From positions 124,001 to 188,000 of the forward strand of contig NW_025408668.1 in the NCBI RefSeq assembly GCF_020360975.1: a stretch of DNA of 64,000 nt. The letters run 5' to 3'. Below the pieces are notes generated by a model, which was not told the origin of the DNA, did not search any database, and saw only the letters and a program-made list of their open reading frames with translations. Source of the DNA: Hirsutella rhossiliensis. Its lineage: Eukaryota; Ascomycota; Sordariomycetes; Hypocreales; Ophiocordycipitaceae. Position 1 is the stretch's first letter. Every line of letters starts with the position of its first letter. The position numbers and the translations under genes were made by a program. Positions 8,783 through 64,000 of this stretch are shown one piece after another.

Positions 8783-9252
8783 TATAACGACTAGTATTAT
8801 TCCTAAGGGATAAACCTATCGATAGGTTTATATTAGTAGATATAATAAGGCGTAGTCTAAGTAATAATAAGTATATTACGTTAGTAATAAGTTAGAGGTT
8901 ATAGACTATAAACTATAACTAAGTAATTAGAATTAAAGATAGAATTATAATAAAGATCTATAATATATTAAAAGCTATTAAGCTATCTATTTAAAGGAGT
9001 ATTCCGTTCCTTCCTTATATATCTTAAGAGCTTCCTTAGATTGCCGAGAGCACTAGGTAATCCCGTCGCCTAGGAGCGCTAGGGCGCTAGAGCAATCCTA
9101 TAATCCTAGCTATAAAGCGTTAGAGCGCTAGAGTAACCTATCGCTTTAAACTTAATTAGCCCGTCGGTCCGTTTAATATTCCTTGCTCCCAATATTATAT
9201 ATCCTCGTAATATATACTAGTCCCCGCGGTTTACTAGACTATAGTTATAATA
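8783..9252 (-). repeat. Element A LTR, left (3' LTR)
   Basis: About 470 bp, starting TATAACGA (TG to TA) and ending TAATA, directly followed by a polypurine tract on the minus strand. It shares its first roughly 215 bp with the LTRs at 16,167, 45,215 and 56,797. Beyond that its middle part matches the 56,797 copy but not the 16,167 or 45,215 copies. Confidence 0.75.
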
Positions 9253-9275: not shown

Positions 9276-9487
9276 TTACCCTTAAGACCTACTACCTTAG
9301 CCGCCGTATATAAATATACCCTTATTGCGTTATACGTAAGTATATTATTCCTTATTCCTTTATCCTTTTAAGATATACTACTAATAGTATATTTAGTTAT
9401 ATTTAAAAATCCCGTTCTTATAATTCTAATAAATCGCGTTAACGATCGGAGCTAGTATCCTAGACCGAGATCTATAGTATTAAAATT

Positions 9488-10037
9488 ATACCTTACTCCT
9501 ATTATTTTCGGTTAGGCCTAACTTATAAGGTTAGGGAGCGTTTTAATTAGTATTCTAAATATACCTTTATAGGCCGTTCTTATAATAGGTATAATATAGC
9601 GTCCGCTTATTTATTTTATCCCTTTCCTTCCTTATTATTCTTTTTCGCTAATATTCCTTCTTTTTCTAGTTCGTTATATTATAAATTAATAGTAAAAGAT
9701 TAATTTAGACGAACGGAAAGTAAAAGAAGCGTTAAAAGAAGTAATAGCTCGCTTAGCTCGGATTAGGAAATAGAAGCGTTTCTTAAAGGACCGAGGTAGT
9801 AAGTTATTTTAGTAGGGTATATAAGCTATTAATAAAGAAGATAGTATAACGCGTTCTTCTTAAGATAAATCGGTTTATTTATTAAATAAGGAAACTATTA
9901 CTATTAGCGAGGTTTAATCGTTTAATACCTTAGACGTATTAAACTAAGATATTATTCTTAGTAACCTTATATTTCTAAGTAAGGGTTCGCTTAGTAAAAC
10001 TATTAAAGTAGAGAACTATAGTAGGTTAAGTACTTAA
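9488..10037 (+). pseudogene. Antisense zinc-cluster-like ORF of Ty3 element A
   Basis: Plus-strand frame opposite to pol, between the 3' LTR/polypurine tract and the pol 3' end. The start codon is now ATA, while copy B still has ATG. All six expected cysteine codons (residues 3, 6, 13, 22, 25, 32) read TAT or TAC, with spacing C-x2-C-x6-C-x8-C-x2-C-x6-C. A charged, Leu/Ala-rich stretch follows (DERKVKEALKEV, then ARLARIRK), interrupted by TAG/TAA from Gln or Trp codons. There is a one-base length difference from copy B. Function is unknown. Confidence 0.6.
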
Positions 10038-16000: not shown

Positions 16001-16166
16001 CCTAAGTAACTATACCTTATATCGAAGGGTAATAATCTCGCGTATTATATCCTAAGGCGATATAGTAGCTCTAGAGTTAGTTAATCTAGCTTACTATATA
16101 AGTATATTAATAGTTACGATATTACTTAAAGTAACGTAGTATTATACTAAATAAGAGCTTTTAACG
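10038..16166 (-). mobile_element. Element A gag-pol, Ty3/gypsy, heavily RIPed
   Basis: Minus-strand order from right to left. Gag has a CCHC zinc-knuckle relic near 15,230-15,275. Protease is at about 13,000-13,700. Reverse transcriptase is at about 12,060-12,760, with FRLFKYLV and a VVYLDNIL box near 12,280. RNase H is at about 11,550-11,900 and integrase at about 10,450-11,450. Near 10,100-10,200 there is a possible chromodomain start (YEVEKILD-like). Stops are frequent in every frame. The organisation is that of a complete 7.85-kb element between LTRs at 8,783 and 16,167, so it was inserted whole and mutated in place. Its sequence is closely matched by copy B. Confidence 0.85.
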
Positions 16167-16635
16167 TATAACGACTAGTATTATTCTTAAGGGATAAACC
16201 TATCGAGGGGTTTATATTAATAGATATAATAGGGCGTAGTCTAAGTAATAATAAGTATATTATATTAGTAATAAGTTAAAGGTTATAGACTATAGACTAT
16301 AACTAAGTAATTAGAATTAAAGATAGAATCGTAATAAAGATCTATATTAAAAGCTAAAGAGCTATCTATCTAAAGGAGTAAAAGTAGGTAGCTATATATA
16401 CCTATAGAGACTATCCTTAGATTATAGTCCTAGCCGTAATCCCCTTTATAGCTTACTATAGCTTACTTATAAGCTATACTCCTAAGTAGTAATCTATCTA
16501 TATAAGGCTTACTTAGCTTATATACGCTCTAGGTAAGCTAAGCCTAAGTAACTTCTCGTCCTAACTATTATTCCGAGCCGCCTTATTATATAAACGTAGC
16601 TGGCTCTCCTATAGCCCGCTAACCGTAGTCGTAAT
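16167..16635 (-). repeat. Element A LTR, right (5' LTR), different subtype
   Basis: 469 bp, nearly the same length as the left LTR. It shares the first about 215 bp and the last few bases, but carries a different middle segment (AAAAGTAGGTAGCTATATA and onward) that matches the LTR at 45,215. Two LTRs of one element should be identical at insertion, so this mismatch needs recombination or two different source elements. Confidence 0.7.
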
Positions 16636-17121
16636 ATATATCTATAGTTAGCTTTATATTACTTAATACCTATCTCTACCTCTCTTACCTATAGCGAGAG
16701 TATCGCTTACTCTATTATTAGCTAGGTATCTAGCCCTCCTATTACTGCTCCCTACTATCCTTAGGCCTATTCTCCCTCCTCTAGGTTATCGGGATATCTA
16801 TATTATATCCTTTTAGTCTAATCTCTCTCTAGGCTTTATAGCCTTATCTAAAAAGAGCTTTATATATATTAAGGGCCGGTATATACTTCGTATAGTAGTA
16901 TAGGGCTAAATAATTATTTATCTAAAGCTAAGGAGAAAGAAGGAAAACTCTATCTTAGTCGCGACGGTTATCTATCTTCCTTAGTCCCTAGCTCGACCTA
17001 TATTCGGGTGCTATTCGGCCTAAGTTCGGGTCGAGCTCTGCCTATACGTAGGTCTACTTCGGCCCGACTTCGGTGCGGTCGCTATAGTATAACCTTAGCC
17101 TTCTACGGGCGTAGCCCGTAA
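16636..17121 (-). mobile_element. Probable gag-side remainder of the second Ty3 relic
   Basis: RIP-type sequence between the element A LTR and the right candidate LTR. Read together with 5,821-8,782 it fits one minus-strand relic split by element A. No domain is recognisable here. The assignment is by position. Confidence 0.4.
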
Positions 17122-45214: not shown

Positions 45215-45682
45215 TATAACGACCGGTATTATTCCTAAGGGATAAACCTATTAAGGGGTTTATATTAGTAGATATAATAGGGCGTGGTCTAAGCAATAAT
45301 ATATATATTACGTTAGTAATAAGTTAGAGGTTATAGACCGTCGACTATAACTAAGTAATTAGAATTAAAGATAGAATTATAATAAAGATCTATATTAAAA
45401 GCTAGAGAGCTATCTATTTAAAGGAGTAAAAGTAGGTAGCTATATATACCTATAGAGGCTATCCTTAGATTATAGTCCTAGCCGTAATCCCCTTTATAGC
45501 TTACTATAGCTTACTTATAAGCTATACTCTTAAGTAGTAACCTATCTATATAAGGCTTACTTAGCTTATATACGCTCTAGGTAAGCTAAGCTTAAGTAAC
45601 TTCTTATCCTAACTATTATTCTAAGCTACATTATTATATAAACGTAGCTAGCTCTCTTATAGCCCGCTAACTAGCTATAATA
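45215..45682 (-). repeat. LTR of Ty3 copy C
   Basis: 468 bp, starts TATAACGACC. Its middle segment matches the 16,167 LTR (subtype II) and not the 8,783 LTR. A polypurine tract on the minus strand follows at 45,683-45,705. Confidence 0.72.
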
Positions 45683-45907
45683 TAATATCTCCCTTCCTTT
45701 TAGTCTTATTTATAAGACCTACTACTACCTTAGCCGCTATATATAAATATACCCTTATCGCGTATATATATATTCCCCGTTCGTCCTTTCTATCCCTTAG
45801 GATATACTACTAATAGTATATCTAGTCGCGTATTAAAGGATCGTTCTTATAAGACCCTTAAGCGTATTTATTTAGCTAAGTCTATTAATCGTCTTAGTTT
45901 TAATATT

Positions 45908-46444
45908 ATATTATATTCTTTTTATTTATCGCGCGGCTTCTACTATAAAATACTAGAGAAATCTTCTAAGTATACTAAATATATATAGTAGGGTCGTTCC
46001 TACGATACGTTAAGTATAGCGATTAGCTCCTATAGGTAACTTTATTATCCTACTTATTATTTATAGCTAATATGTTTCTTAGTATCCTAAATAAATCTAG
46101 AGTCCGATCGATTAAATAAAGAAGAAGAAATTACTAAGGAGCGAATATTAAAAGCTTAAGCTAACCTAAATAAAGCCTTAGCTCGTTTAGCGCGGCTTCG
46201 CTATTAAAAGCGCTAGCTAAAAACAAAGGGTACTAAGATAGTCCGTTAGGGCCTTTATTCCTTAGATAACCTTAACGAGGCTAAGCGCTAAGAATCTAAA
46301 GCGGTAGTCGATATTTAGTCTATAGGTAGATTTAATATAATTAATTAAAATGCTATTAGTTTATTAGGTAATTTTAAGATACCTAAGGTAGATTTTACTA
46401 GTAGAACTATTAAAGTAAAGAACTATAGTAAGTTAAGTACTTAA
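45908..46444 (+). pseudogene. Antisense zinc-cluster-like ORF of copy C, divergent
   Basis: Plus-strand frame in the same position as those at 9,488 and 57,512, but clearly diverged in DNA. The first 33 codons align to copy B without a gap, and codons 3, 6, 13, 22, 25 and 32 are all TAT/TAC, giving C-x2-C-x6-C-x8-C-x2-C-x6-C. Shared residues include RG/LG at 9-10, K14, E17, S19 and GRS at 29-31. Downstream, NLNKALARLARLR and KTKGTKIVR correspond to the helical region of A and B. From about 46,380 on the DNA is nearly identical to A again. Confidence 0.62.
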
Positions 46445-47395
46445 GTAGTTCTTAGGTATTTTCTTTTAGTTTATATCCCTTTTACTTAAAAAGGTATTCC
46501 TATTACTAACCTTATTTTCTTATATTTAGTATTTATTTAGCTTTATATTCTTAATTATTATTAAATTTAATTTTATCCTATAGTTTAGCGTTTTATAGTA
46601 CTAGTTCTAATAATAAGATATAAAATATTATATATATCTATATTATTAATAGTAGCGAAAGTTTATAGTTAACTTTTAAAATAGCTTTCTTAACTTTAAA
46701 CGGTCTAAGTTTCTTAAAATCTAATTTATTACTTAGTCGTTTTATTTTAATATTTCGTTATATAAGGTAGACTATATCTCCCTCTTAAAAGATTAGTCCC
46801 TATAATCTTTTCCGATTATAATAAGTAGATATTCGTTCTCTAATAAATTAAAGTTCTTATTATATTTCTTTATATAATTTTTATAGCTAATTTACTTATA
46901 GTATCGCTCGTTCTACTTATAGTCCTTATTAAGTAACCTTAAATACTTCTAGGTTATATCTATAATTAGTATATACTAGTAAGAGCTTAGTTATTTCTAT
47001 AACTAAGCTATTATAAGCTAGTTACGCTATTAGTAGCTATTTAACTTAATCGTTTTATTCGTAGCTAATATAGTATTATAAATATTATTTAAGTATTTAG
47101 TTAAGTCGTTTTATTTATCCATTTATTTATAAGTAATAAGCTATACTAAGCTTATATTTCGTCCTTAATTATACTATAAGAGCTTACTAAAACTTAGCTA
47201 TAAATATATTTCCTTTATTAAAGATAATCTTATTCGGTAGTTTATAACTACTAATAATAGTTCGTAGGAATATATATACTAGCTCTTCTATATTACTTAC
47301 TTCTTTATATAGTAAGAAGTACCTATACTTTATTAGTCTATTAGTAATAACGAATATACTATTATACTTAACGTTAGTTATAGGTTCTTTTAATA
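46445..47395 (-). mobile_element. Ty3 copy C, 3' part of pol (left of the copia insertion)
   Basis: Close match of about 10,040-10,990 in element A (integrase C-terminal region), minus strand. It is interrupted by the copia element at 47,401 and resumes at 53,753. Confidence 0.75.
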
Positions 47396-47400
47396 GTAAT

Positions 47401-47877
47401 TATCGCGAAGCGTGGCCTGATTTTATAGTTCTCGGAGATATCCCTTAGCACGAGGGACCTAGGAAGCTAAAAAACAGGTTTTAAGGAAGGAGCTAAAAGG
47501 AGGTGCAGAGAGGAGGGTAGGGGTAAGAGGGGAAGCAGAAGTAGCGATAGCTTCCTATAGAGGTAGCGAGAGATAAGACGGATATGCCGGCAACGGCTAG
47601 AAAGGAGGGGAAAAAACTAGTAAAAAGCTCGGTAGTCGAAAGGATATTAGTAGCTTCTTTAAGTAGGATCTTCTTTATTAATTAAGATGCTAGATAGGTA
47701 TAAAGAGGGGCGTTAGATAGAGGAAAGAAGGATAATTAAGGAAATATAATAATTACTCCCTTGCCGTAATTGCTGCTCCCGTAAGAATTAAATCTCTCTA
47801 CCTTGCCTATCCGACCCCTTACTTCTAATTTTACCTTTATATATTTTTATGCACTTCTCGTATCTCTCTACGCGAGA
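47401..47877 (+). repeat. Copia 5' LTR (477 bp)
   Basis: Starts TATCGCGAAG (TG to TA). It pairs with 53,271-53,747 at identical length. It keeps more TG and CG sites than the 3' LTR in its second half. Confidence 0.88.
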
Positions 47878-47891
47878 GTTATAAGCCCGGG
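47878..47891 (+). other. Copia primer binding site, matches initiator-Met half-tRNA
   Basis: GTTATAAGCCCGGG directly after the 5' LTR. With one RIP change undone (TG to TA), its first 11 bases, GTTATGAGCCC, pair with GGGCUCAUAAC of the initiator tRNA-Met anticodon arm. Half-tRNA priming of this kind is known for Drosophila copia and yeast Ty5. Confidence 0.6.
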
Positions 47892-48049
47892 AGGAATAGT
47901 ATTCCTATACCTTCCGGCTACTATAAAAGGCACCCTTCTTATATCCCTCGTAGCTCCCTTTTACCCCTCTTACTAGAAAAGCCGATTTTTAACTAACTTT
48001 TCTGCCCCCTTTCTCCGTAACGATATCGAAAAACGACTCCTCTACTATC

Positions 48050-51000
48050 CCTATAGTCCGTAGGACGATTCTTATAGAGCCCTAAGATTAGGATAAGTAG
48101 GTAAAGGAGCTACGGGCTCGTATAGATAGAACTATCTATAATTTGGTCTTCTCTAATAAGCAGGACCCTCTCGAGCCCCCTCTTCGTCCTAGGGCAACGG
48201 ACTTTATAGAGGGAGCTACCCTCTTCTCCGAGCTAACCTCTATATAATAGAGAGCTTTTTCTACTGCCTTAGGTAACTACGAGAGTTACCGTAAGGAATA
48301 CCTTTACGAGATAAAGCTACTAACTGCTATACGCACGGCGATAACGGAATCCGTTAGTACCGTAAAGCTAATCTCTCTTCGAGAGGAAGAGACTCCTAGG
48401 CAGTAGCTTTTAAAGCTCGAGACCTTAATAGCTCCCTCGAGAGGTTATATAACTAACTATATTAGGAAGACCTATACGGCCTACCTAAGAGCTTTTTCTA
48501 CTAGGAACCTACTAGCTTCTTCGTAGCTAGCTAAGTAGGAAGAAATCCTCGAGGAAGCTAACTAATACTTCCTTATAGAAGCTCTTTCCGGCTAGTGGCT
48601 ATAGGATATATCTCTGCTAATAAAGCCTATTAGTAACGGTTACTTAACTATCTTTCGAGAAGCTAGCCGGGAACTAGATAAAGAGGCTGCTAGAGTATAA
48701 TAGCAAGCAGTCTTATTCCTTTATAGCTAGCACTCGACCTAGACGGCTCGACCTGCTGCCCCTGCAGCTGCTGCAGCCCCTATTGCTGCGGTTCCCGCTG
48801 CTGCTGCTGCGGCTGTTACCCCTCCGGCTCTACCTCCCTCGAGAGCCTTAACACCGTCTTTAACGGCTGCCCCGGTCCCGGGCCCGGCTTCGTATCTTAC
48901 TCCGGGCCCGGCTTTGCATCTTGCTCCGGGCCCGGCCCCGGCCCCGTTAGTTAGACCGGCCCGACTAGTCCCCTAATAGACCTTTTAGTCCGTTAGTCGA
49001 AAAATCAAGGAACTAGTCGAAATCGAACCTCTTCGTTAAAATTAGCAATAAGGGGTAAAAAGGGGGGGTTTTTAAGTAGACCTTCTAGATCGGGACAAGG
49101 ATTCCTCGAAGAAATAACGTACGAGGAGGAATCGACCTACCTACTAAGCATATAAAAAGCCCTATCGGCTAGAAGACTATTAGTAGGTCTTCGAGGAAAA
49201 CCGACCTAAAGGAATTAACCCTTTAAAGAGGCTACGAGAAATAGTATAATAGTCTCTTAAGGAGGACCCCTCGTTATAGAAGAAGATAGACGAGATTCGG
49301 GTTGCTAAGAAATAGCAACTAACGCCGCTGCCCTTATTCGAGCTATAAATTTAAGGAAAAATCGTTAGTATAGTAAATCCAGCATTCGTCTTCCCTATAG
49401 ATTAGCAAAACCAACCGTTAGAGCCCTTTAATTATCCCCTAAGAAAATCAGCTATCCTTAACTCTAGTGCTTCCCTCGATATTTATAATATACTCTTACG
49501 ATTCCGGTCCTTTAAGAAGGCATAGAGGGAATATCTTATTGCCGGGGAATTAACCGTATAGATAGAGGGATACGGAAGGGTGAATTTTACGATAAAATTA
49601 CCTAATAGGTCTTTACGAATTCTTCGACGAAAAAGGGTAGCTTTTTGCCCTCGATTTTTAATAAGCCTAATTTCCTTCCGCCTTCTTTAAGAGGAAGGAA
49701 TCTTCTAGGGTACGACGTCTAAACCTATAAGGCTAGTCTAGAAGAATTAGACTATTAGGCTTATCGAGGAGAAATTCGGTTAATTTATTCTCGAATTCCG
49801 ACCTATCCTTAGGAAGGAATCTCTCGAGAAGTTAGCTTTCCCTACTAAGAGGAATAGGTCTACTATAAAGGACCCTCTTCTAGCAGCCTAAGGAGACGGC
49901 ATTCTTTAGCACGCACGACTTAGTTACCCGGGCCCCCTAGCTTTATATAAGCTAGGTTAATAATAGGGCGTACGAATAAGGGGACTAAAGACCGTTGAAT
50001 GCGAATAATGCGGCTAAGGAAAGACTAAGAGACGAATTTCTAGACGAACGCCTTTATAGCCGGACCAGCCGTATAAGGAAATTTAGGTCGACTAGACCAA
50101 CGTCTCTAGGGATTAGGAAAGCTTCGTTAGGGTAATGTTTTTTATAGACGCTTTTTTAGGGATAGTTTTCCCCTATTTCTTACGGACCTACCTAAGTAAG
50201 TATAACTAGTCTACCCTCCGGGACTTTATTAACTAGATAAAATCCTACTTTAGCTACGAGGTAAAAAAGATATAGTCTAACGGAGAGCTATTTACGAAGG
50301 ATATCTTAAATTAGCTTCGAAAAAGGGGCATTTTACCCCTCCTATTAGCACTAAATACCTAGGCCTAGAACGGAGGGGCAAAAAGATTAGGGGGTGCTAT
50401 AATAGAAAGGGCCCGTATAATAAGACTTACTATAAGGCTTCTATACGACCTTTAGAGGGAAGTCGTTAAGACTGCCTATTACCTTCGGAACTAGACCCTA
50501 AGGGACCCTAGGGGACTAAGGGACTATAGGGACCTAGAGACCCTTTTTAAGACCTAAGGAATAGACTAGAAATCCCCCCTCGAGCTCTTTATAAAGAAGA
50601 GGGCCTCGCTAGCCTACCTTCGTGCCTATAGCTATAAGGCATACGTAATAACTACCGATATATAGCTAAAAAGAAAGAAGAAAAGAAAGCTTAATCTAAG
50701 AGCCTTTATTAGTTACCTCGTTAGTTATAATTCTATGAATATCTTCCGGATCTAGATTCCTCTTCTATAGAAGGTTATTTTAACTAAGGATATAATTTTC
50801 GACGAATCTAGCTTCTTCGATAGAAAGAGGGATTAATAACCCCTCTTACTCTCTTAACGTTAGCTAATTTAGAAGATTTAAATCCCCCCTTCCTAATAGT
50901 CTTAAGAAGAGGTCCTAGATAAAGAAACGGAAGAAGAAACCGACGTCGAAGTAGTTAAGGATAACGCCGACTTCGAAGAGGAAGCTGCTAGATTAGATGA

Positions 51001-53200
51001 TCTAGACGAAGAAGGAGACTATAGGAAAGCGGTAGAGCTAGAATACGCCTACCTACCTACGCCTCCTCCTACGTAAGAAGAAGATCTAGAAGCAGTTTTT
51101 TTAGTTAGTCTTCCTATCTCGACCCTTAAGGGGGTAGGAAAGGCACCTCTCTCGAAGGATTACCCGGCTGCCTTTTTATCCTTACTTCGAGAAGCAAAGG
51201 AAGGTATAGGGCCCGATATAAAAGAAGACTAACCTCTCCCTTATTTCGATCGTTTTTCCGACTTCTACCTAACGCTAATAGAAGACGGTTCCTATAGAGC
51301 GTTTATAGCAGGCCGGCTTTTTAAGCCTCTATTAGCAAGGAAGGTATATAAAAGAGACCTCCCGGACCTACTAGTAAACTAGAAGTAGCTAGAAAAACAC
51401 CCCTTTAGAGACTAGTTTTTCTAGGCCTAGAAAGACCACCTAGCCTTATACGAGGAGATAGGGTCTTTTAAAGAGGTCCTTAAGGAAAAGGTAAGAGGAA
51501 AATAGGTCCTTAGCTATAAGTAGGTCTTTATCTATAAGACTAATAAACACGGCTTCCTTTAAAAGTATAAAGCCCGGCTAGTTATCTATAGGAACTAGTA
51601 GGAAAAAGGGGATCTACCTACTAAGGCAACTACCTTAGTAGGGATGTCTTTTCGGACCCTTATAGCTATAGCAGCAGAATTCGATCTCGAACTTAATTAG
51701 ATAGATATAGTTAACGCCTTTATTAACTGCCTACTTAAGGAAGAAGAAGTTATCTATATACGCCTTCTACTAAGCTTCTAATAGCTAGGAAAGGTTCTAT
51801 AGCTTAGGAAAGCTCTATATAGATTATAAAGATCACCCCTTCTTTAGCAATAGCATTTAATAGGTTCCCTTAAAGCCCTAGGCTTTAAGAAAGTCCCTTA
51901 GGAACCGTGTATAATATAGAAGGGTAAAATCACGGTCTTTTTCTACGTCGACGATATTATCTAGGCGTACCTAAAAGAGGAAGAAGTTACTACTAGGGAG
52001 GCTATATAAGGCCTATAATAAAGGTATAAGATAACTAGGCTAGGGGAGCTAAAGTAGTTCCTAGGGATACGAATCCTTTAGAATAGGTCCTAATAAACTA
52101 TCTAGCTTACCTAGGACGCCTATATCGATAAGGTCGCTTATAAATTCCTCCTTAATTCCCTCGATAAGAAGCTTCCCTCTACGCCTATATTAGATAAAGA
52201 GCTTTTACCTAATCCGTCGTTTTAAGCTAGGGAGCAAGAGAAACACTAATATTAATAGAAGGTAGGCTCCCTGCTTTTTTTAGCTATTTCTACTAGACCG
52301 GATATCTCTTTTACGGTCTCCTAGCTAGCTAGGCATAACTAGAATCCTAGCCCTAGGCATTAAGAAGTAGTAGATAGACCTATCCTTTATCTCTATTTAA
52401 CGAGATTATATAGTCTGCGCCTAGGAGGGTAGGAAAGGAAGAAATTAGCTACCGAAATCTTCCTTTATTCGAGCGATTCGTCCTTTACGGATAATTCCTT
52501 AGATAGAAAGAGCTTATAAGGGTATATTATATCCCTTTTTAGAGGAACTATTACTTAGAGAGCTTCGAAGTAAGCTACCGTTACGACTTCTAGTATAGAG
52601 GTAGAGCTACTAGCTCTCTTAGAAGCGTTAAAAGAAGCGATTTTCCTTAGCCGGCTACTAATATCTCTACGACTATAAATTCCGACCCTATTAGCTATAG
52701 AATACGATAATATATAGACTATATAAATTCTTACGGAAAACAGTAAGTTATTAACCTAGCTATAGTATATCGATATTTACTAGTATTAGTTACGCTAAGA
52801 GGTCTAAAGGGGACTTATTTCCGTCTATTAGGTTCTAACAGTATTAATAAAAGCCGACGGTCTTACGAAGCCCCTACTAAAGTAGAAGCTAGCTGTCTTT
52901 TTATAGTAAATAAGGCTAGAAGACGTTTAAGAGAAGCTATCCTTAAAGGCCCGCCTTAAGAGTCTATAAGAGGAGCTAATAGCCCGTACGAGAAGGTAAC
53001 GTCTATAGCTAAAGAAAAGGAAGAGGTTTTTCCCTTTAGAGGGCCCCCTATTTTAATTAGGGTTTTCCCTTCTAAGAAGGCCCCCTTTCTTATAGGAATT
53101 TCCTTTTTAGGCCCCTTTTCCTAAGTAGGTCTAAAGAGCCTAGGGACCTAAAAGGCCCCTGCTTTCTCGAGTAAAGGGAGAAGTATAGAGCTAAGAACCT
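48050..53200 (+). pseudogene. Copia gag-pol, RIP-degraded
   Basis: Readable blocks: an Ala/Pro-rich gag segment at 48,755-48,965; protease ILNSSASLDIY (D-S-G region, G/A-shifted) near 49,450-49,485; GAG-pre-integrase HARLSHPGPLALYKLG near 49,908-49,955; integrase zinc region near 50,000-50,045; reverse transcriptase at about 51,430-52,130 with FIYKTNKHGF, DIVNAFIN and FYVDDI near 51,943; RNase H at about 52,370-52,960 with LATEIFLYSSDSSFTDN and a TSSIEVELLALLEALKEA block. Gln and Trp codons are largely TAG/TAA. Confidence 0.85.
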
Positions 53201-53260
53201 CCTCATACGCTTACTAGCCCGAAGCCGTATTAGCTATGCCCTTAAGGGGTAGGCTATAGC

Positions 53261-53270
53261 TAAGGGGGTG
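53261..53270 (+). other. Copia polypurine tract
   Basis: TAAGGGGGTG immediately before the 3' LTR TGTCGCG; short purine-rich primer site. Confidence 0.6.
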
Positions 53271-53747
53271 TGTCGCGAAGCGTAGCCTAATTTCGTAGTT
53301 CTTAGAGATATCCCTTAGCACGAGGGACCTAGGAAGCTAAAAAACAGGTTTTAAGGAAGGAGCTAAAAGGAGGTATAGAGAGGAGGGTAGGGGTAAGAGG
53401 GGAAGTAAAAGTAGCGATAGCTTCCTATAGAGGTAGCGAGAGATAAGACGGATATGCCGGCAATAGCTAGAAAGGAAGGGAAAAAACTAGTAAAAAGCTC
53501 GGTAGTCGAAAGGATATTAGTAGCTTCTTTAAGTAGGATCTTCTTTATTAATTAAGATACTAGATAGGTATAAAGAGGGGCGTTAGATAAAGGAAAGAAG
53601 GATAATTAAGGAAATATAATAATTACTCCCCTACTATAATTGCTGCTCCTATAAGAATTAAATCTCTCTGCCCTACCTATCTAACCCCTTACTTTTAATT
53701 TTACCTTTATATATTTTTATATACTTCTTATATCTCTCTATATAAGA
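53271..53747 (+). repeat. Copia 3' LTR (477 bp)
   Basis: Starts with intact TGTCGCGAAG. Compared with the 5' LTR it has many extra TG-to-TA and CG-to-TA changes (for example CTATATAAGA for CTACGCGAGA at its end). The differences read are transitions. Confidence 0.88.
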
Positions 53748-53752
53748 GTAAT

Positions 53753-54073
53753 ACCTTTATAATATAATTAAAAGCTATTAAATCCTATAGTTTCTTTAGT
53801 ACTAGTAGCGGTTATAATTCTCTATATAGTTTATATCGCTTAGCTTTACTTTATATATAAAGTTTATATACTTTAATAACTTATTATATTACTTTTTTAA
53901 GCTATAAGAAGTTATATTATTATTTAATCCGCTTTATTAATCTTTAGATTCCTTAGTATCTATATATTAGATATTTATATATATCTTATATAACTTTATC
54001 TTATAATTCTAGCAGTATTTAGATTTTATTTTTATATATTAAAACTTTTAAATATTTTATATTATATCCGTTA
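53753..54073 (-). mobile_element. Ty3 copy C, pol fragment right of the copia insertion
   Basis: Match of about 10,996-11,310 in element A. It ends abruptly where the LINE begins, so the rest of copy C is missing. Confidence 0.7.
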
Positions 54074-56796
54074 TATAACGAATAATAAGTAAAACTTCTC
54101 GCGAAACCGATATACGCTTATAGCGGGTGCGCATCGCGACTAAAACACTAACTAATACTAGGAATTAATTTAGCAGTATTAATTACCCTTAGTAACGATA
54201 CTACGCTAAGGCCGAGGGGTAGGTAGACGTAGTGGCGGCCCTTAACGCACCGGGCTCGATTAGAGCGCGTGGCGCGAAGAGACGCTACCCGAATTTATAC
54301 ACCCCGATAGAGCGAGTTAATAAACCCGAAGCAGCGATGCGATACCGGCCCAGGCGCCGAGCGACCCCGTAGAAAAAGCAGCATACGACGAACTCGCGGG
54401 CTTTATCCTAAGCGCATAGTTCGGCAGGGTATAGGCAGTAGTCGAACGGCTCTCTAGGGCGAAGAGCCGCGCCGGCAGCGCGTCGTCGGCGGTGCTCCGC
54501 GCGAACGAGAGCTTTAAGACGATAATCCGGGATATAATTAAGGAGGCAGTTAAGGAAGAACTCCGCCTAGGCATCGCTTTAGGCCTAGGGGGCCCTAAGC
54601 GAACCTAGGCCGCGGTCGTAGCCGAGACTAAGGGACCGACCTAATACGAAGCTATAGTAAAATAGGTCCTACCGCGCTATAAACGCGAGATTATCGTGGT
54701 CCCTACTAGGGCACCGCCCGAAATCCTAAGCCGCGAACCGAAGGATATAGTAAAGGCGGTAAACACGGCCCTAAAAGCCACGAGCGCTATAGCGGCGAGG
54801 CGCCTCTAAAGCGGAGATATCGCGGTTATATTTAATACCGCGGCGAGAGCCTATTAAAGGGACTAAGGCTAGGTTAAGGCCGTGTTCGGACCGGAGGCTA
54901 CGATCTCCCGCCGCGCGTATACGGTAGTCGCAAAGAACGTCCCCTTAGAGGTAGCGATAGTAGATAGGGAGCGATTGCTCTATAAGATTATAGAGGCGAA
55001 TAAAGTCGAGGTCCTCTAGGCCTAGGCGCTACGCCCCCGATCTAAGATATCGACGGCGACGACTATACTTATTAGGGTCGGTAGCCTAGAAGAGGCTAAT
55101 AGGCTCTACGACCTAGGCCTAGTCCTCGAAGTATAGATCTTCCGATATAAACCTTACGACGAGTCGGTCTAACTATAGAGGTGCTATAACTACTATAGAT
55201 ATAGCTATATCGCTAGGCGATATATATCGATATAACTCTATGGCCGATATAGGAGCACGGTATATAACGGAGGCAAGGATAAATATAGGGCTAAGAAGGG
55301 CGAAATCCCCTATAACTATATCTTATACTAAGGGGACTACCTATCGTAGACCCGGACCTACCCCGTAGCGAATAAAGCCTAGGAAAAGGCGAGGGAAAAC
55401 TACCTACGTTAACCCTAACGGTTCGCGAATACCTAGACGTACGCCGAGTAATAGGTGCTCCCTACCGTCGAAACCTAGGGCGTTCCTAAATCGACTATAG
55501 TCCGGAAGCAGGGACTAGGTAGACCGCGCTAGGATAAGAGGTCGAGCTCGAGACACCCGCTAGCTAGCAGGGCTAGGGAGGCCGAACTAAGTACGAACGA
55601 TATTTATAGGTATAGTAGATAGAGAAGCGCTAGGAGATAGAGCGCCTCCCTCCCTATATAGACGACCCCTTTTACCCTAACCTTACCTATATATAACTAA
55701 AAGTACTATTCTAGAATATATAGAAGAGATATAAGCTAGCTCGGTTAGCGCTTTACTACTAGGCCGGCTTCGACCTAATAGTACTATAGGAAGTAGAAGC
55801 TATACCGGGAGGCGGCCCCCCCCCCCTTAGAGCGGCGCCTTATAGCCTAGTCTATAGGGAGGGGAGGTACGCGCTATATATATATAAAAGGCTCGGGCCG
55901 GGGACTTAGTCGCCCCGGTCTAGACTAGACTAAAGCGAGGTAATTTTCGGGGATAGCACTAAACTACGGGCGATTTACTTACTACTAGGGGCCGCGAGGG
56001 TAGGAGCGCTACGCGACCTAAGCGTAATCGAACCGGAGCACCCTATAGTAATAGTAAGGGACTTTAATATCTATTACCCGCTCTAGGACGGATACGATAG
56101 AACCTTAGATAGCGCGATATAACTTATATAGGAGGCGATAAGGCTACGACTTAAACTCGCTACCCTAAGAGGGGAGTATATAAGATTCTTCTATAGCTAA
56201 AGGGATAGTACTATCGACCTAGCTTAGGCAATGCCGGAGACCGGAACACGGTATACCGGGCCCGACCTAGACCTAACCGGGTTAGACTATATCCCTTAAA
56301 CTATTATACTATAGGTCGATACCTAGGCCTAGGCACCTAAACCGGCCCTAAGGTAGAAAGAAGCGGAAGTAAAGCTAGTCGAAGCCGAGACCACGTCCTA
56401 GCTAGGACTATACTAGCTAATACTCTAGACGCCTAAGGATATCGATAAGGACCTAGACTACGTCTTCGCTACTCTAGCGTAGATCGCGATAGCTATAGTT
56501 CCGCGCTAAGGGCGAGCATTACCTAAGGGCAACGTATAGTTTACCCCGGAGGTAGGGAGGGCGACGAGGGAGGCTAAGAGGGCGAGGAGGAAGTATAGGC
56601 GGAAAAGGAATAAGGCGAACTAGGAAGACCTATATAAGGCGTCTATAGCTTAAAAGCGGACCGTTTATAAGGCGAGGAGGGCCTACTAGCGCGAGTTCCT
56701 AGAGGAATTTAGCGCCGATAATACTAAGCTCTAGAATATAGAGAGGTAGGTAAGACTCCGTAGTAGGCTACTACCGGAACCGACCTATATCCTACC
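54074..56796 (+). mobile_element. Tad-like non-LTR retrotransposon (LINE), 3' part missing
   Basis: Plus-strand ORF1-like region with a CCHC zinc-knuckle relic near 55,172-55,235 (RCYNYYRYSYIARR, with Cys/His changed to Tyr). An APE-type endonuclease then runs at about 55,900-56,500 with VRDFNIYYPLWDGYDR and RDSTIDLA. A TPEVGRATREAKRARRK segment follows. Reverse transcriptase is absent because the element is cut at 56,797 by the LTR of copy B. It is RIP-altered, but many CpG remain. Confidence 0.8.
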
Positions 56797-57276
56797 TATA
56801 ATAACCGGTGTTATTCTTAAGGGATAAACCTATCGAGGGGTTTATATTAGCAGATATAATAGGGCGTAGTCTAAGCAATAATATATACGTTACGTTAGTA
56901 ATAAGTCGGAGGTTATAGACCGTAGACTATAACTAGGTAATTAAGTAATCGGAATTAGAGATAAGATTATAATAGAGATCGTAATAATTATATTAAAAGC
57001 TATCGAGCTATCTATCTAAAGGAGTGTTCCGTTCCTTCCTTATATATCTCGAGAGCTTCCCTAGATCGCCGAGAGCACTAGGTGATCCCGTCGCCTAGGA
57101 GCGCTAGGGCGCTAGGGCGATCCTACGATCCTAGCCGTAGAGCGTTAGAGCGCTAGAGTAACCCGTCGCTCTAAACTTAATTAGCCCGTCGGTCTATCTA
57201 ATATTCCTTGCTCCTTACGTTACGTGTCCTCGTAATATATGCTAGTCCCGCGGTTCGCTAGACCGTAGTCGTAATA
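56797..57276 (-). repeat. Ty3 copy B LTR (3' LTR)
   Basis: About 480 bp, starts TATAATAACC. It has the same middle segment as the 8,783 LTR (subtype I) but more CG/TG preserved, for example CTCGAGAG at 57,048 where copy A reads CTTAAGAG at 9,023. Confidence 0.75.
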
Positions 57277-57299
57277 GGATGCCTCCCCTCCTTTTAGTC
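57277..57299 (-). other. Polypurine tract of copy B
   Basis: Minus-strand A/G run directly upstream of the 3' LTR, same position and length as at 9,253 and 45,683. Confidence 0.68.
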
Positions 57300-57511
57300 T
57301 TGCCCTTAAGACCTGCTGCCTTAGCCGCCGTGTATAAATATACCCTTATCGCGTCGTGCGTAAGTATGCTGTTCCTTATTCCTTTATCCTTTCGGGATAT
57401 GCTGCTAATAGTATGTCTAGTCGTGTTTAAAAATCCCGTTCTTATAATTCCGATAAATCGCGTTAACGATTAGAGCTAGCATCCTAGACCGAGATCTACG
57501 GTATTAAAATT

Positions 57512-58060
57512 ATGCCTTGCTCCTATTGTTTTCGGTTAGGCCTAACTTATAAGGTCGGCGAGCGTTCTAATCGGTGTTCCGAATATGCCTCTATAGGCCG
57601 TTCTTATAATAGGTGCAATATAGCGTCCGCCCGTTCGTTTTATCCTTTCCTTCCCTATTATTCCTTTTCGCTAATATTCCTTCTTTTTCTAGTTCGTCGT
57701 ATTATAAATTAATAGCAAAAGATTAATTCGGACGAACGGAAAGTAGAAGAAGCGTTAGAGGAAGCGATAGCTCGCCTAGCTTAGATTAGGAAATAGAAGC
57801 GTTTCCTAAAGGACCGAGGTAGTAAGTTGTTTTAGCGGGGTATATAAGCTATTAATAAAGAAGATAGTATAACGCGTTCTTCTCGAGACGAATTAGTTCG
57901 TTTATTAAATAAGGAAACTATTGCTATTAGCGAGGTTTAATCGTTTAGTGCCTTAGACGTATTAGACTAGGATGCTATTCTTAGTAACCTTATATTTCCG
58001 AGTAAGGGTTCGCTTAGTAGAACTATCGAAGTAGAGAACCGTAGTAGGTTAAGTGCTTAA
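57512..58060 (+). pseudogene. Antisense zinc-cluster-like ORF of copy B, best preserved
   Basis: 183 codons on the plus strand, opposite to pol, with an intact ATG (MPCSYCFRLGLTYKVG). Cys codons at residues 3, 6 and 22 survive; residues 13, 25 and 32 are TAT, the RIP product of TGT. Spacing is C-x2-C-x6-C-x8-C-x2-C-x6-C, as in fungal Zn(II)2Cys6 factors (57,518-57,607). The first stops, TAA TAG at 57,710, fit former CAA CAG. In the same frame a helical charged region follows (ERKVEEALEEAIARLA, then KRFLKDRGSKLF), and the end is near RLSA. A former DNA-binding or nucleic-acid-binding product is plausible. Its function is unknown. Confidence 0.65.
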
Positions 58061-61000
58061 GTGGTTCCTAGGTATTTTCCTCTAGTCCGTATCCCTTTTA
58101 CTTAATAAGGTATTCTTATTGCTAACCTTGTTTTCTTATGTCTAGTATTTATTCTGCTTTATATTCTTAATTGTCGTCGACTTCGATTTTTTCCTATAGT
58201 TTAGCGTTTCGTAGCGCTAGTTCTAATAATATGATATAAAATATCGGGTATATCCGTATTATTATTAGTAGCGAAAGTTCGTAGTTAACTTTTAAAATAG
58301 TTTTCTTAACCTTAAACGGTCTAAGTTTCTTAAAATCTAATTTATTGCTTAGTCGTTTTATTTTAATGTTTCGTCGTACGAGGTAGACTATATCTCCCTC
58401 TCGAAAGATTAGTCCCTATAATCTTTTCCGATTATAGTAAGTAGACATTCGTTCTCTAACGAATTAAAGTTCTTATTATATTTCTTTATATAATTTTTAT
58501 AGCTAATCTGCTTATAGTATCGCTCGTTCCGCTTATAGTCCTTATTAAGTGACCTTAAATGCTTCTAGGTTATATCTATAATTAGCATATGCTAGTAAGA
58601 GCTTAGTTATTTCCGTGACTAAGCTATTATAAGCTAGTTACGCTATTAGTAGCTATTTAACCTAATCGTTTTATTCGTAGCTAATATAGCATCGTAAATA
58701 TTATTTAAGCGTTTAGTTAAGTCGTTCTATTTATCTATCTATTTATAGGTAATAAGCTATACTAAGCTTATGTTTCGTTCCTAATTATACTATAAGAGCT
58801 TGCTAAAATTTAGCTATAAACGTGCTTCCTTTATTAGAGACAATCTTATTCGGTAGTCCGTAATTACTAATAATTGTTTATAGGAATATATATACTAGCT
58901 CTTCCGTATTGCTTACTTCTTTATATAGTAAAAAGTACCTATACTTCGTTAGTCTATTAGTAATAATAAATATACTATCGTACTTAACGTTAGTTATAGG
59001 TTCTTTTAATAGTAGTAGCTTTATAATATAGTCGAAAGCTATCGAATCCTATAGTTTTTCTAGTATTAGTAGCGGTTGCAATTCTCTATATAGTTTATAT
59101 CGTTTAGCCTTACTTCGTGCGTAAAGTTTATATTCTTTAATAACTTATCGTACTACTTCTTTAAGCTATAGGAAGTTATATTATCGTTTAATCCGTTTTA
59201 TTATTCTTCGGATTCCTTAGTATCTATATATTAGATATTCGTATATATCTTATATAACTTTGTCTCGTAATTCTAGTAGTATCTAGATTTTGTTTTTATA
59301 TATTAGAACTTCTAAATATTCTATATCGTATCCGTTTAGTACTTTATATTCTTTTATCTATTTTAGGATCTTCTAGTAAGTCGAGTCGTTAGGTTATACT
59401 TTAAATATTATATTTAGCTGTCGTTGCTAGTAGTTCCCGTTTTCGTTGATTTCTAGGAGCTGTCCTTCCGCTATAGGTGCTCCTATATCGTAGTTACTTC
59501 GTCGACTAAGGGCATTAGCTCGACCGTTTTCTATTCCTTTTCTATAGATTATTTCGTAGTCGAATTCTAATAAGTATTCGGCCTATCGGATCTATTATCC
59601 GTTTAACTATTGCGTTATTATAAAATATAAGATATTCTTATAGTTTATATAGACCTTAACTTTATATTTACTTCTAAGAAGGTAGTATCGAAATTCCTTA
59701 AAAGCTTAAATAATTACGAGGAATTCTTTATCGTAGATAGGGTAATTAAGTTCTACGCTATATAGCTTTTTCGAGTAAAATACAATTAGTCGTAGTCTTC
59801 CTTCCTTATCTTTTTATCCGATTTATACTCCTAGAGTAAAGTCTAATATATCGGTTTCGAGTTCGATTTATCGTTTTAGATCGAAGGTAGTTAAGACTAG
59901 TTCTTACGTAATCGTAGTCTTAATATATTTAAAAGCTTCGTTAGCTTTATCGTCCTATATAAATTCTTTTTCCTTCTTCGTTAAGTCATATAGTAGTACT
60001 ATAATCTTTCTAAAATCTTTAATAAATCGTCGGTAGTAATTTATAAATCCTAGGAAACTTTATACGTCCTTAACGTTCTTTAGCGTTAGCTATTCTTTAA
60101 CTAAGTTAATCTTATCTTATTATATCCGTATCTCTCTTAGTAAGATCGTATATCCGAGGAAGTCTACTTCCTATATATAGAACTTACTTTTCTTTAGTTT
60201 AACTAGTAACTTCGCATTCTAAAGTACGCGGAGTACCTTATAGACGTGTTCCTTATATTCTTCTAGGGTGTCCGAGAAGATTAGGATATTATCTAGGTAT
60301 ACTACTATAAAGATATCTAAGTATTCGCATAGGATATTGTTAATTATCTATTAGAAGGTAGCTAGTGCATTTATAAGTCTAAATAGCATTACTAGATATT
60401 TAAATAGTCCGAATTTCGTTCTAAAGGCTATTATCTATTCGCGTCCCTTTTTTATACGTATTAAGTTATAGGCGCCTTTAAGGTCGAGGGCTATAAACTA
60501 TTTTTTGCTATATAGTCGATCTTATAGTTCCGATATAAGCAGTAATAGTATTCGGTCCTTTATTATAATATTATTTAGGCGTCTATAGTCGATAACTAGT
60601 CGTAGCTTGCCGTTTTTCTTTAAAATAAATATAACTAGATAGCTTACTTCGGATATTAATATTCGTATATATCCTTTTCGTAGATTCTCGTTAAGGTAGT
60701 CGCGTAGCGTTTATAGTTGCTTTTCGTTTAGGTTATAGATTTTATAAAACGTCGGCGTTATTCTATCCTTAAGATAAATTTCGTGGTCCTATTAGCTATA
60801 TTTAGGTAACCCTATCTCGAGTTCTTCCTTAAAGAGTTTATTGTATTTTCGGTATTCCTAGGGGATATTCTTTATTCTATCTTATAGGCTTTATTCTTTC
60901 TTTTAAGAGCTGGTTTCTCTTAACTCGAGCTCTTTATTAATTTATCTAAGGTCTTTCCTTAGAGTAGTAATAACTCTTCGGATCTTTATATTATATCCTT

Positions 61001-64000
61001 TGTTCTATTTATATCGGATGCTAGGTTATATAGCCGTGTTAGTTAGTACGTAGGTCTTATTAGTCGATTTTATTATATCCGACGGTTCGGTTGCTGTTTT
61101 TATTTATATCGCTAAAGCCCGTAATAATTTACTTAAATGGTTATCCCTTTTATCCTATTTAGTAGCTAAATTATCGTAAAATTTTACTTTCTCCTAAATC
61201 TACTAGTCCTAGAAACTTACGTCTTCGTTCTAACATAGCTAGCTAGTTTTCTAGTTAATTAGTAGGTTGCTCTCCTATAGCTATAGAAGCCCTAATATAA
61301 GGTTATGTTCTCTAATATCTATAATATCGAAGTTAACTTATTCGTCGTAGCCCTAGATATTAATATCGAGGTGATTAATCTCTATATTAATAATTCCGTT
61401 ATTATAGTTAAAGGCCTCTCCTTCGATATTCGTAAGTTTATATAGATCTATCTTATATCTCTATATAAGTCGGTAACGATTAACGACTCTAGGTAAAACG
61501 TAATTGCCTATCGCGCCGTAGTCTAAAAGTATACGTACGTAATATCCCGCGATTTAGATATCTAATACTATTTAGTCGCTATAGCTTGCCGTTGCTATAT
61601 ATAGGGTCCTTAGATCTTATTATATCGTGCTAGTCTATAGCCCTTTTATAGATAGCGTACCTCGTTTTTTACCTAGTCCTTATTCGTTTTATTTAGGTAT
61701 TCTTCTTCGATTTATTATTAATATCGTTTCTTTACGTTTTTATTACGTAGTATTATATTAGAGCTTAAGAGACTGATTTCTTATAGCTAATCGAAGATTT
61801 CTTATTTCTCGACGCTATATCGTTTATATTATACTGCTTCGCAGTTAATTGCGTACTATACTTCGCAATTCTATTCGTTTTCGTACTAAAGGTTAAGTTT
61901 TCGTTCTATGTCTTTTTGTTTTTTACGTAGTGTTTCCGTGTTAATTCTTCCTTAGTCGAATACGGCTTATAGCCTTCGTACGTATTGCTAATAATCTTTT
62001 AGTATACCGTTATATCGTTTATACTATGCTTATACTTTTTCGTATTTATAAACTCTATAGTTCGGGTATATATATTTATTATAATCTTCTTCGTCGCATT
62101 TAACTCGTTACGTAAGTCTTTAGAAGATTAAGGGTTTAGATATCTTAGAGCGAGTAGCGTTATACTATTCTTCTATTTTAGCGTGTTTATAGATTTCGTA
62201 TATCTCCGAAAGATATCTCGTTAATAAACCGTAATTATCGCGGTATTTAAGTAGCGTGCCGTAATCGGGTTCTAATAATATAACTTAGTCGTTCGGGTAG
62301 CGTTAATCGATTTTCTAGTAGTCTAGTTCTATACTTAAGTAGGGTTTCGAAAGTACTTATCCCTCGAACCTAACCGGGAAGGCGTCGTGTCGTGCCTTTA
62401 TCTAGAAGTATATTATATAATCTAGGTAAACGTATAATATCTATAAAATATACTTATAGTGCTTATAAGTAAGTAGTATTTATAGATCGTCTCTAAATTC
62501 TCCTCGTAGTTACTATTCTCGTTATAGAGCTATAAAGGTATCGACTACGGCGATAGCTATAGCGTAGTCTCCTCTACGTAGTGCCGGTTAATATCGAATT
62601 AGTATAGCTTATTAGTTTTCCGTGAGAATTTAAGGTGTTTATTAGGTTCTAATTTTAAGCATTTCTTTAAATTCTTCGAAGTATAGAGCGTGTTCTCTAA
62701 TCGTAGCATTCTCCCTTAGTAGCGAGGGTAGTAGTATAAGTTCGTTCTCGTCTTCCGTTTCTCTAGGTATTTCTTATTCTTTAGAGCTTATATCGTCGAC
62801 ACTTCGTTGTCCCTCTTTAGGTTATTATCTAAGTTTCGTAAGTATAAGGGCTACGTCTATATCTTCTTTATTATATTGTTTATAGACTGCCTATCGTTAT
62901 TATCGATTTTTATTTCGTATGTCTTCCTAGAATCGTTTACCGTTCTTCTTAATCTAGTCTTAGGAGACTCCTTTAAGATAGGGGTGTTCCGGTTCTGCGA
63001 ATTTAACTTATTTCTATATTTTAGGATCCCTTCGTTATATTATTATAAGGGTTTTCTTTAGTAGCTTTAGGAACTATCCGGTACCGTTTTTATCGCTTAA
63101 GTATACCGTATATTCGTCGTCGTAGTATATAGTCTAACTAAGGAGTTTATACTTTAGTTCTTATCTATTAGTAGCGTTTAGGTGTTTCTTACCTTCTAGG
63201 GCTAGTGCCTAGTAGGTTTTCTTCTCCTTACGAGGTTGTCTATATTCTTTAGAGTAATATCTAAGTTTCCCGTAGTTAAAATACTTTCCTTTGCTTTTCT
63301 ATATTATATCTAGATCTATCTTACCTAGGTTAGTTATATAGGCGTAGGTAATAGGAGTTTCGCGCTTCTTTTTATAGTTAGCGCGTCGGTTAAAGTTATT
63401 CCTATAGGAAGGGTTCTAGTTTCCTCTTCCTTATTTCTTTTCTTAGCGTCGCGCGTACTATCTATCGTCGATTCGTACTACTATAGTAATATAGTCCGAG
63501 AGGTTATTAGGTCGATTTTCCTTATAAAGCTCGTCCTTAACTTCTTCTTTAAGCCCGTCGTAGAATCGTGATATAAGAGGTTCGTCGTCCTAATTAAGCT
63601 TTAAGGTAACTTATCGGAACTTAGTAGTATAATCCGATACTAAGATCCTTTATCGGAGTTCTCGAAGTTTCTATTTAGCTTCTCGTTCCTCGTCGGTTGT
63701 TCTAAATACCTTCGTAATAGCTTCCTTAAATCCTTAGAAACTAGCAAAGACTTCGTCTATCTCGTTATCTTATCGCGCTAGTTAGTTATCGAGAAAGTCC
63801 CTTATAATAGGTCTAAACTAAGCGAGTGCCGTTCTAGATAAACAATTTCCTATATAGAGTACCTTTTCGACTAGGTCTAAGAGTTTAGTAGGATAAAACT
63901 AGTAGTAGGCCTTAAGTTAGGTAAGAAAGTCTTAAAGCGTGCCGTAAGTACCGTCGAATAGTCCTAGCTGTTTTAGTTTAACTGCTTCTCCGAGGTCCCT
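58061..64000 (-). mobile_element. Ty3 copy B gag-pol, less mutated, continues beyond window
   Basis: Near-collinear with element A at an offset of about 48,024. Integrase is at about 58,450-59,500, RNase H at about 59,600-59,900 and RT at about 60,080-60,780. A gag CCHC relic lies near 63,255-63,300. Many more TGC, CGT and TCG triplets survive than in copy A, yet frames are still broken. The 5' LTR lies outside the window. Confidence 0.85.

What the first reader, a model, noticed from the sequence alone, without database searches (positions are those of the whole stretch)
57512..58060. Antisense Zn(II)2Cys6-like gene carried by a Ty3/gypsy family
Seen: a plus-strand frame opposite to pol, between the 3' LTR/polypurine tract and pol, with Cys (or TGY-to-TAY Tyr) at residues 3, 6, 13, 22, 25 and 32. 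That is C-x2-C-x6-C-x8-C-x2-C-x6-C, the binuclear zinc cluster spacing of fungal transcription factors, followed by a helical charged region. Known: Zn2Cys6 domains are fungal DNA-binding modules, usually followed by a coiled-coil dimer region. Inferred: the element carries a small regulator or nucleic-acid-binding protein in antisense. I do not know of a described role for such a gene, but similar small Cys-rich hypothetical proteins exist in fungal genomes.
Basis: partly seen in the sequence, partly recalled or inferred. Interest (0 to 1): 0.9.

Follow-up and report, generated by a model that had tools for sequence, protein, structure and literature searches.

The report
Swappable regulator gene in fungal retrotransposon
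A fungal jumping gene carries, on the strand opposite its own genes, a small extra gene (broken by mutation in this window, open elsewhere in the same genome) for a six-cysteine protein that is predicted to bind DNA; this gene and the promoter stretch beside it come in five matched versions on elements that are nearly identical in the other parts compared, so the protein likely controls its own element's promoter.

Summary
In detail: the six positions are Cys or Tyr in all 41 type-1 copies aligned, and one copy keeps all six Cys. The gene starts at 57413 and likely has a short intron; in this window it is dead. Un-RIPed copies elsewhere in the genome hold the frame open, opposite and convergent to an integrase/chromodomain pol (95 of 95 stretches with pol in view); between two types dN/dS is 0.16-0.25. 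The protein is homologous to Botrytis 'Putative BRTN', product of an antisense gene of Boty elements published in 2011, so the gene is of a known kind. Apparently new (paper searches): five element types that agree in R/U5 and the 3' end of pol (at most 2.2% transversions) differ strongly in U3 and antisense gene (18-36%), and the two match in 27 of 27 protein-selected stretches; four of five U3 types have their own repeated words upstream of the TATA box; the first Cys module matches the canonical second Zn2Cys6 module. Most likely a self-encoded U3 regulator; DNA binding and regulation are inferred, and Pfam Zn_clus is not passed.

The parts
57413..58060 (+). RIP-broken antisense gene of copy C, BRTN family, cassette type 1
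   Evidence: N-terminal extension resembles P0005 and P0116
57512..57607 (+). six-cysteine module (Cys or RIP-derived Tyr at residues 3, 6, 13, 22, 25, 32 counted from 57512)
57633..57692 (+). predicted intron (60 nt here; 59-62 nt in other copies)
   Evidence: the one length-variable stretch of the gene in 41 copies; joined exons align without a relative gap to P0001 and, by eye, to P0108; P0101 has an extra in-frame stretch there. Not shown by RNA
57693..58057 (+). second exon: coiled-coil region and tail, 8 in-frame stops
   Evidence: helix prediction on homologue P0010
56797..57025 (.). R/U5 part of the 3' LTR of copy C (conserved between types)
57026..57276 (.). U3 part of the 3' LTR of copy C, type 1; a less mutated type-1 U3 (L008) has repeated GAGCGCTA words
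57277..57412 (+). polypurine tract region and leader of the antisense gene
   Evidence: length 136 in 41 of 41 copies
58061..64000 (-). Ty3/gypsy pol of copy C (integrase end first), convergent with the antisense gene, runs off the window; only the integrase end was tested
   Evidence: tblastn of an intact integrase region; Pfam domains on un-RIPed relatives
9389..10037 (+). same antisense gene in copy A, type 1, more heavily RIPed (all six positions Tyr)
8783..9252 (.). 3' LTR of copy A (U3 type 1)
16160..16637 (.). 5' LTR of copy A (U3 type B, unlike its 3' LTR)
45818..46446 (+). diverged antisense gene of copy B, cassette type B
45215..45688 (.). 3' LTR of copy B (U3 type B)

Best explanation
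Positions 57413-58060 hold a RIP-broken copy of a BRTN-family antisense gene, which in intact copies of the same genome encodes a small six-cysteine protein that is predicted to bind DNA through a Zn2Cys6-like module and to pair through a coiled coil, and likely regulates the element's own U3 promoter. SHOWN: antisense position convergent with pol, open frame in un-RIPed copies, homology to Botrytis BRTN, purifying selection, and matching of antisense-gene type with U3 type on a backbone that agrees in the parts compared. INFERRED: the protein is made from a promoter in or beside the 3' LTR, enters the nucleus (basic N-terminus), dimerises, binds the type-specific repeated words 43-179 nt upstream of the U3/R marker (TATA at about -21) in both LTRs, and through its acidic, hydrophobic tail most likely activates gag-pol transcription, much as DNA-binding transactivators of complex retroviruses do. 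A template switch in pol during reverse transcription would bring in the regulator and its target together, which would explain the matched types. Repression or copy control by the same contacts is the main alternative.
For: Antisense and convergent with pol in 95 of 95 stretches with pol in view, 82 distinct by DNA; 6 of 101 stretches showed no pol hit (first tally). Open frames with all six Cys in un-RIPed copies, e.g. L074 and L072. dN/dS 0.335/2.05 (NG86) and 0.361/1.44 (YN00) over 178 codons; differences by codon position 0.30/0.25/0.56. Homologues in many filamentous fungi, including Botrytis 'Putative BRTN' P0126, 47% over 118 aa to a Hirsutella protein. Transversions between types: pol 3' end 0.4-1.2%, R/U5 0.4-2.2%, antisense ORF 18-34%, U3 21-36%. 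U3 and ORF types agree in 27 of 27 protein-selected stretches with at least 100 nt of U3. Repeated words in U3 exceed every one of 200 dinucleotide shuffles in types 1 (L008), B, 3 and 4; they lie upstream of a TATATA at -21. The last 60 residues have net charge -2 or lower in 106 of 113 proteins that pass a length and motif filter, of 166 held, with a mean of 10.8 F/W/Y/L/M/I (no control set was run). Model of P0010 with pLDDT 87, long helix 77-120.
Against: No experiment shows DNA binding, expression or regulation. Pfam Zn_clus is not passed; no meaningful match to a solved structure. U3 type 5 has no excess of repeated words (k=8 2, shuffle mean 1.7, maximum 7) or inverted pairs (1; 154 of 200 shuffles reach it). 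In the RIPed window U3 itself k=6 barely exceeds the shuffles (57, maximum 54) and k=8 does not (10, maximum 11). The words were picked from the same U3s in which they were then counted. One of five control stretches (type-3 pol) also exceeded its shuffles for inverted pairs (17 against a mean of 5.2, 0 of 200). U3 and the antisense gene are neighbours, so their matching could be hitchhiking; the leader between them stays alike in 3 v 4 and 1 v B (1.7% and 5.6% transversions; 10.9-18.5% in the other four pairs), so the exchanged block is not uniform. In the broad tally one copy (L097) was discordant, on a 77-nt U3 match. The backbone was compared only in R/U5, 0.5-1 kb of pol and, for one pair, 656 nt on the gag side. 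Activator against repressor is undecided.
Confidence: 0.6

Rival explanations
1. The protein is a repressor that limits the element's own transcription or excludes related elements (copy control, like a phage immunity repressor with its operators).
For: Matched U3/antisense types on one backbone, repeated words around the promoter, and two types coexisting un-RIPed in one genome: type 3 with presumed 5' and 3' LTR mates 99.2-99.4% identical in 2 of 3 pieces fetched, type 4 copies 98-100% alike in the antisense ORF.
Against: Tails are acidic and hydrophobic, as in activation domains; canonical fungal Zn2Cys6 proteins are mostly activators (recalled). Nothing here measures the sign of regulation.
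Confidence: 0.22
2. It is a nuclear accessory or nucleic-acid chaperone factor (pre-integration complex import, integration targeting) and not a promoter regulator; U3 matching is a by-product of adjacency.
For: Small Cys-rich protein with a basic N-terminus and coiled coil; some plant antisense aORF proteins localise to the nucleus and have been proposed to act like retroviral accessory factors (PMC7264820, passages read).
Against: It does not explain type-specific repeats at promoter position or why protein and U3 both differ while R/U5, pol end and gag side hardly do.
Confidence: 0.12
3. The antisense transcript acts as RNA (dsRNA, silencing), the frame being incidental.
For: Convergent with pol; antisense transcripts of retroelements may feed dsRNA silencing (proposed in PMC7264820).
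Against: dN/dS 0.16-0.25 and six conserved Cys show selection on the protein.
Confidence: 0.04
4. Chance frame or RIP artefact in AT-rich DNA.
For: The window frame has stops and half its Cys positions are Tyr.
Against: Open un-RIPed copies and homologues with E of about 1e-65.
Confidence: 0.01

Closest known systems
brtn / BRTN, antisense gene of Boty-like retrotransposons (Zhao et al. 2011, Virology 417:248; title and citing passages seen, paper not held)
   Same: antisense, between pol and 3' LTR of a chromodomain Ty3/gypsy element; protein homologous (P0126)
   Different: here homologues across many genera, several alternative types in one genome matched to U3, un-RIPed and RIPed copies side by side, and a predicted intron in type 1; whether the 2011 paper noted any of this is unknown to me
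Plant antisense aORFs (Grande gene23, RIRE2, Retand; review PMC7264820, passages read)
   Same: same place and orientation in Ty3/gypsy elements, proposed regulatory role
   Different: no sequence relation tested here; no six-Cys module mentioned in the passages read
Fungal Zn(II)2Cys6 (Gal4-type) transcription factors, Pfam PF00172
   Same: two C-x2-C-x6/7-C modules, then a coiled coil; acidic tail
   Different: below the Pfam cut-off; first module matches the canonical second module; proteins mostly of about 160-240 aa; carried by a retroelement
DNA-binding transactivators of complex retroviruses (foamy virus Tas, HTLV antisense HBZ; recalled)
   Same: element-encoded protein predicted to act on its own U3; antisense position for HBZ
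   Different: unrelated proteins; function here untested
Phage immunity regions (repressor plus operators; recalled)
   Same: regulator and likely target sites exchanged together on a common backbone
   Different: different biology; sign of regulation unknown here

Membership tests
BRTN antisense gene family | sequence homology to Botrytis BRTN | tested here: met
   P0126 'Putative BRTN' found at E 2.6e-45 by profile A5; 47% identity over 118 aa to P0010, 38% over 182 aa to P0051
BRTN antisense gene family | antisense between pol and 3' LTR of a Ty3/gypsy element | tested here: met
   95 of 95 stretches with pol in view, of 101 tested; LTR, PPT, leader, ATG order read in L071, L072, L074
Pfam Zn_clus PF00172 | profile score above the curated cut-off of 21 bits | tested here: not met
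   12 of 87 members at E<=1, best 0.092; P0126 13.7 bits; P0001, P0003, P0004 12.9-13.3 bits. The genome has 100 Zn_clus matches over the cut-off among 150 scored, none at the places listed
Zn(II)2Cys6 cluster in the wider sense | six Cys with binuclear-cluster spacing | tested here: met
   72 of 87 aligned proteins; 120 of 166 proteins held; the rest are fragments or have Tyr or gaps at a site
Zn(II)2Cys6 cluster in the wider sense | modules in canonical order | tested here: not met
   first module against canonical second: score 22.2, 0 of 200 Cys-fixed shuffles reach it; against canonical first 13.7, 7 of 200. Second module undecided: canonical first 14.8 (13 of 200), canonical second 16.0 (4 of 200)
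Zn(II)2Cys6 cluster in the wider sense | binds two zinc ions and DNA | not testable with these tools
   needs protein
Zn(II)2Cys6 cluster in the wider sense | same fold as solved Zn2Cys6 domains | tested here: inconclusive
   Foldseek and VIA-align gave no such match for the whole model; the small domain alone was not modelled
Ty3/gypsy chromovirus | integrase followed by a chromodomain in pol | tested here: met
   L079 frame: Integrase_H2C2, SH3_Tf2-1, rve over cut-off; L078 frame: SH3_Tf2-1 then Chromo, E 1.3e-17

The most novel reading that the evidence does not exclude
A fungal retrotransposon family carries an exchangeable control cassette: a U3 with type-specific operator arrays together with its own antisense-encoded, dimeric transcription factor whose zinc cluster has its two modules in swapped (circularly permuted) order. 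Elements with the same gag-pol backbone would thus belong to different regulatory or immunity groups, as lambdoid phages do, and change group by one template switch in pol.
Probability: 0.3. Interest if true: 0.88.

Novelty: new variant of a known kind. Interest (0 to 1): 0.64.

Why it matters
Antisense genes between pol and the 3' LTR are described in plant and fungal Ty3/gypsy elements without a determined role (PMC7264820, passages). Here the alternative types within one genome give a direct handle: gene and U3 vary together on a backbone that stays constant where compared, so a matched-versus-mismatched binding or reporter test would settle whether these proteins are regulators. If true, retrotransposons have interchangeable regulator-promoter modules, a new layer in how elements compete, and a zinc-cluster transcription factor family with an altered module order.

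Full report
What is there. It is one of many copies: a DNA search of the whole genome scored 40 of 821 candidates, which match at 90-100% identity. With window copy A, 41 distinct copies were aligned. At the six positions every copy has Cys or Tyr, 246 of 246 cells, and one copy (L024) has all six Cys. Cys to Tyr (TGY to TAY) is what RIP, which turns CpA/TpG into TpA, produces (established knowledge). The window gene is dead: 8 stops in the second exon alone.

Gene model. Homologues P0005 and P0116 begin with a basic MSGR-type N-terminus ahead of the MPC motif; the window shows a like extension from 57413, 33 codons upstream. In 41 copies the neighbouring stretches are constant in length (136, 99, 121, 368, 120 nt), while 57633-57692 comes in four lengths (59, 60, 61, 62 nt in 11, 1, 27 and 2 copies). 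In the window it starts GTTCGT, holds GCTAAT and ends CTAG; in some copies the GT is mutated. Joining its flanks aligns without a relative gap to P0001 and, by eye, to P0108, and P0101 has an extra in-frame stretch at the same spot. I predict an intron; no RNA was seen. Non-coding flanks are also constant in length, so the length argument alone is modest.

Intact relatives. Searching the same genome with a homologue from Annulohypoxylon found 36 matches, 10 cut out as L071-L080. These are far less RIPed and hold an open or nearly open antisense frame opposite an integrase and chromodomain pol (Pfam domains). Many copies have single-base frameshifts in G/C runs (by eye), so not every copy is open; L074 is open throughout (202 aa), and L072 is open (187 aa) though its last few residues suggest a frameshift. 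Of 101 stretches tested (98 loci and three window copies), 95 had pol in view, and in all 95 pol is on the other strand and convergent; these are 82 distinct by DNA, as some loci repeat one place; 6 stretches of about 0.9-1.2 kb showed no pol hit (one search gave 90 of 90 and the same six on 96). Between L072 and L074, over 178 codons, dN/dS is 0.16 (NG86) or 0.25 (YN00), with third positions differing about twice as often as first and second; in the core alone NG86 dS is saturated.

Family. Profile searches gave 5, 148 and 141 proteins (the last two list 120 each and scored only the best 7994 and 7991 candidates); 166 are held. Named sources include Pyricularia, Colletotrichum, Fusarium, Cordyceps, Beauveria, Metarhizium, Hirsutella, Botrytis and Monilinia; most names are 'hypothetical protein', a few are machine names such as seryl-tRNA synthetase, and many have none. 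One is named Putative BRTN of Botryotinia (P0126). An antisense gene brtn in Boty elements was reported by Zhao et al. 2011, known to me only from passages and reference lists of PMC7264820, PMC4227169 and PMC8365987. So the kind of gene is known; the review passages say that the function of these antisense ORFs is not known.

The six-Cys module. In 87 proteins aligned (of 123 then held; I left out 36, mainly near-duplicates and fragments), Cys is kept at 80/81, 79/81, 76/81, 77/82, 79/82 and 81/83, and all exceptions but one are Tyr. These proteins were found by similarity to Cys-bearing queries, which favours Cys. The Pfam Zn_clus model does not accept them. Against 18 Zn_clus segments of the host genome, the family's first module matches the canonical second module (score 22.2, none of 200 Cys-fixed shuffles reaches it) much better than the canonical first (13.7, 7 of 200). 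The second module is undecided (14.8, 13 of 200; 16.0, 4 of 200). The weak Pfam hits of P0001, P0004 and P0126 show the same shift (profile 16-38 against our first module), while P0003's runs in order (profile 2-27). A host template with its halves swapped aligns over both modules (score 25.6; shuffles at most 21.2 in 150) where the native one aligns over half (20.8; shuffles at most 20.3). This fits a circularly permuted, or second-module-duplicated, zinc cluster. AlphaFold2 on P0010 gives a confident small domain and helices 77-120 and 126-147 (pLDDT 87.2, pTM 0.55), with a low-confidence tail. The last 60 residues have net charge -2 or lower in 106 of 113 proteins with the motif and at least 170 aa; no control set was run for this.

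The cassette. RIP makes only transitions, so transversions compare types fairly. Five types (1: winC; B: winB; 3: L072; 4: L074; 5: L095) differ by 0.4-1.2% in the 3' end of pol and 0.4-2.2% in R/U5, but by 18-34% in the antisense gene and 21-36% in U3; one shuffle per pair of ORF and U3 gave 25-35%. Types 3 and 4 are the closest antisense pair (61% protein identity). On the gag side a type-3 copy and window copy A differ by 2.0% over 656 nt. A 60-column scan of type 3 against 4 shows the change at the U3/R marker and again near the end of the antisense gene, with a conserved island at the PPT and leader. In stretches chosen by protein match alone and showing at least 100 nt of U3, U3 and antisense types agree in 27 of 27, 11 further stretches of the 38 having less U3 or, for L097, a weak match; two of the 27 are the same place and three are the reference copies. 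In the broader, not independent tally 95 of 96 agree; the exception is L097. Copy A of the window is a hybrid: 3' LTR type 1, 5' LTR type B.

U3. Repeated words exceed all 200 shuffles in L008 (type 1), L094 (B), L072 (3) and L074 (4), with a different word each (GAGCGCTA, GTGAGC, GGATCA, GTGATC), but not in type 5; in the RIPed window U3 only just at k=6 and not at k=8. In sense orientation they lie 43-179 nt upstream of the U3/R marker, with TATATA at -21 (-26 in type 5), that is, at activator or operator position for gag-pol. Each word occurs 4-9 times in its own U3 and 0-3 times in the others. The inverted-pair test was also positive in one of five control stretches (pol of type 3), so it is weak.

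Mechanism. The anatomy is that of a small transcription factor (basic N-terminus, zinc-cluster-like module, coiled coil, acidic tail) next to a U3 that changes with it. I infer that it binds its U3 and, most likely, activates it; repression remains open. Matching would be kept because a template switch in pol during reverse transcription carries gene and U3 over together; this also means that matching alone does not prove a functional link.

Noticed in passing
window 45215-54094: Copy B is split: its pol stops near 47399 and seems to resume at 53743, with about 300 bp direct repeats (95%) at 47403 and 53273, as if a second LTR element (copia-like reading frames at 49-53 kb, judged by eye) had inserted into it.
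   Followed up: no
window 8783-9252 and 16160-16637: The two LTRs of copy A agree in R/U5 (94%) but not in U3 (about 50%): 3' U3 type 1, 5' U3 type B, so copy A looks like a recombinant.
   Followed up: partly
L073-L089, L093 (same genome): Un-RIPed copies differ by single-base insertions or deletions in G/C runs of both pol and the antisense gene; they may be assembly errors or early decay.
   Followed up: no
L097 (G000:C3:738800-740800): A strongly RIPed copy whose antisense gene resembles type 4 (82%) but whose U3 only weakly matches type 3; possibly a sixth type.
   Followed up: partly
window 18000-43000: Block of GC 0.50-0.61 between AT-rich RIPed flanks, probably the gene-bearing part of the window.
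   Followed up: no
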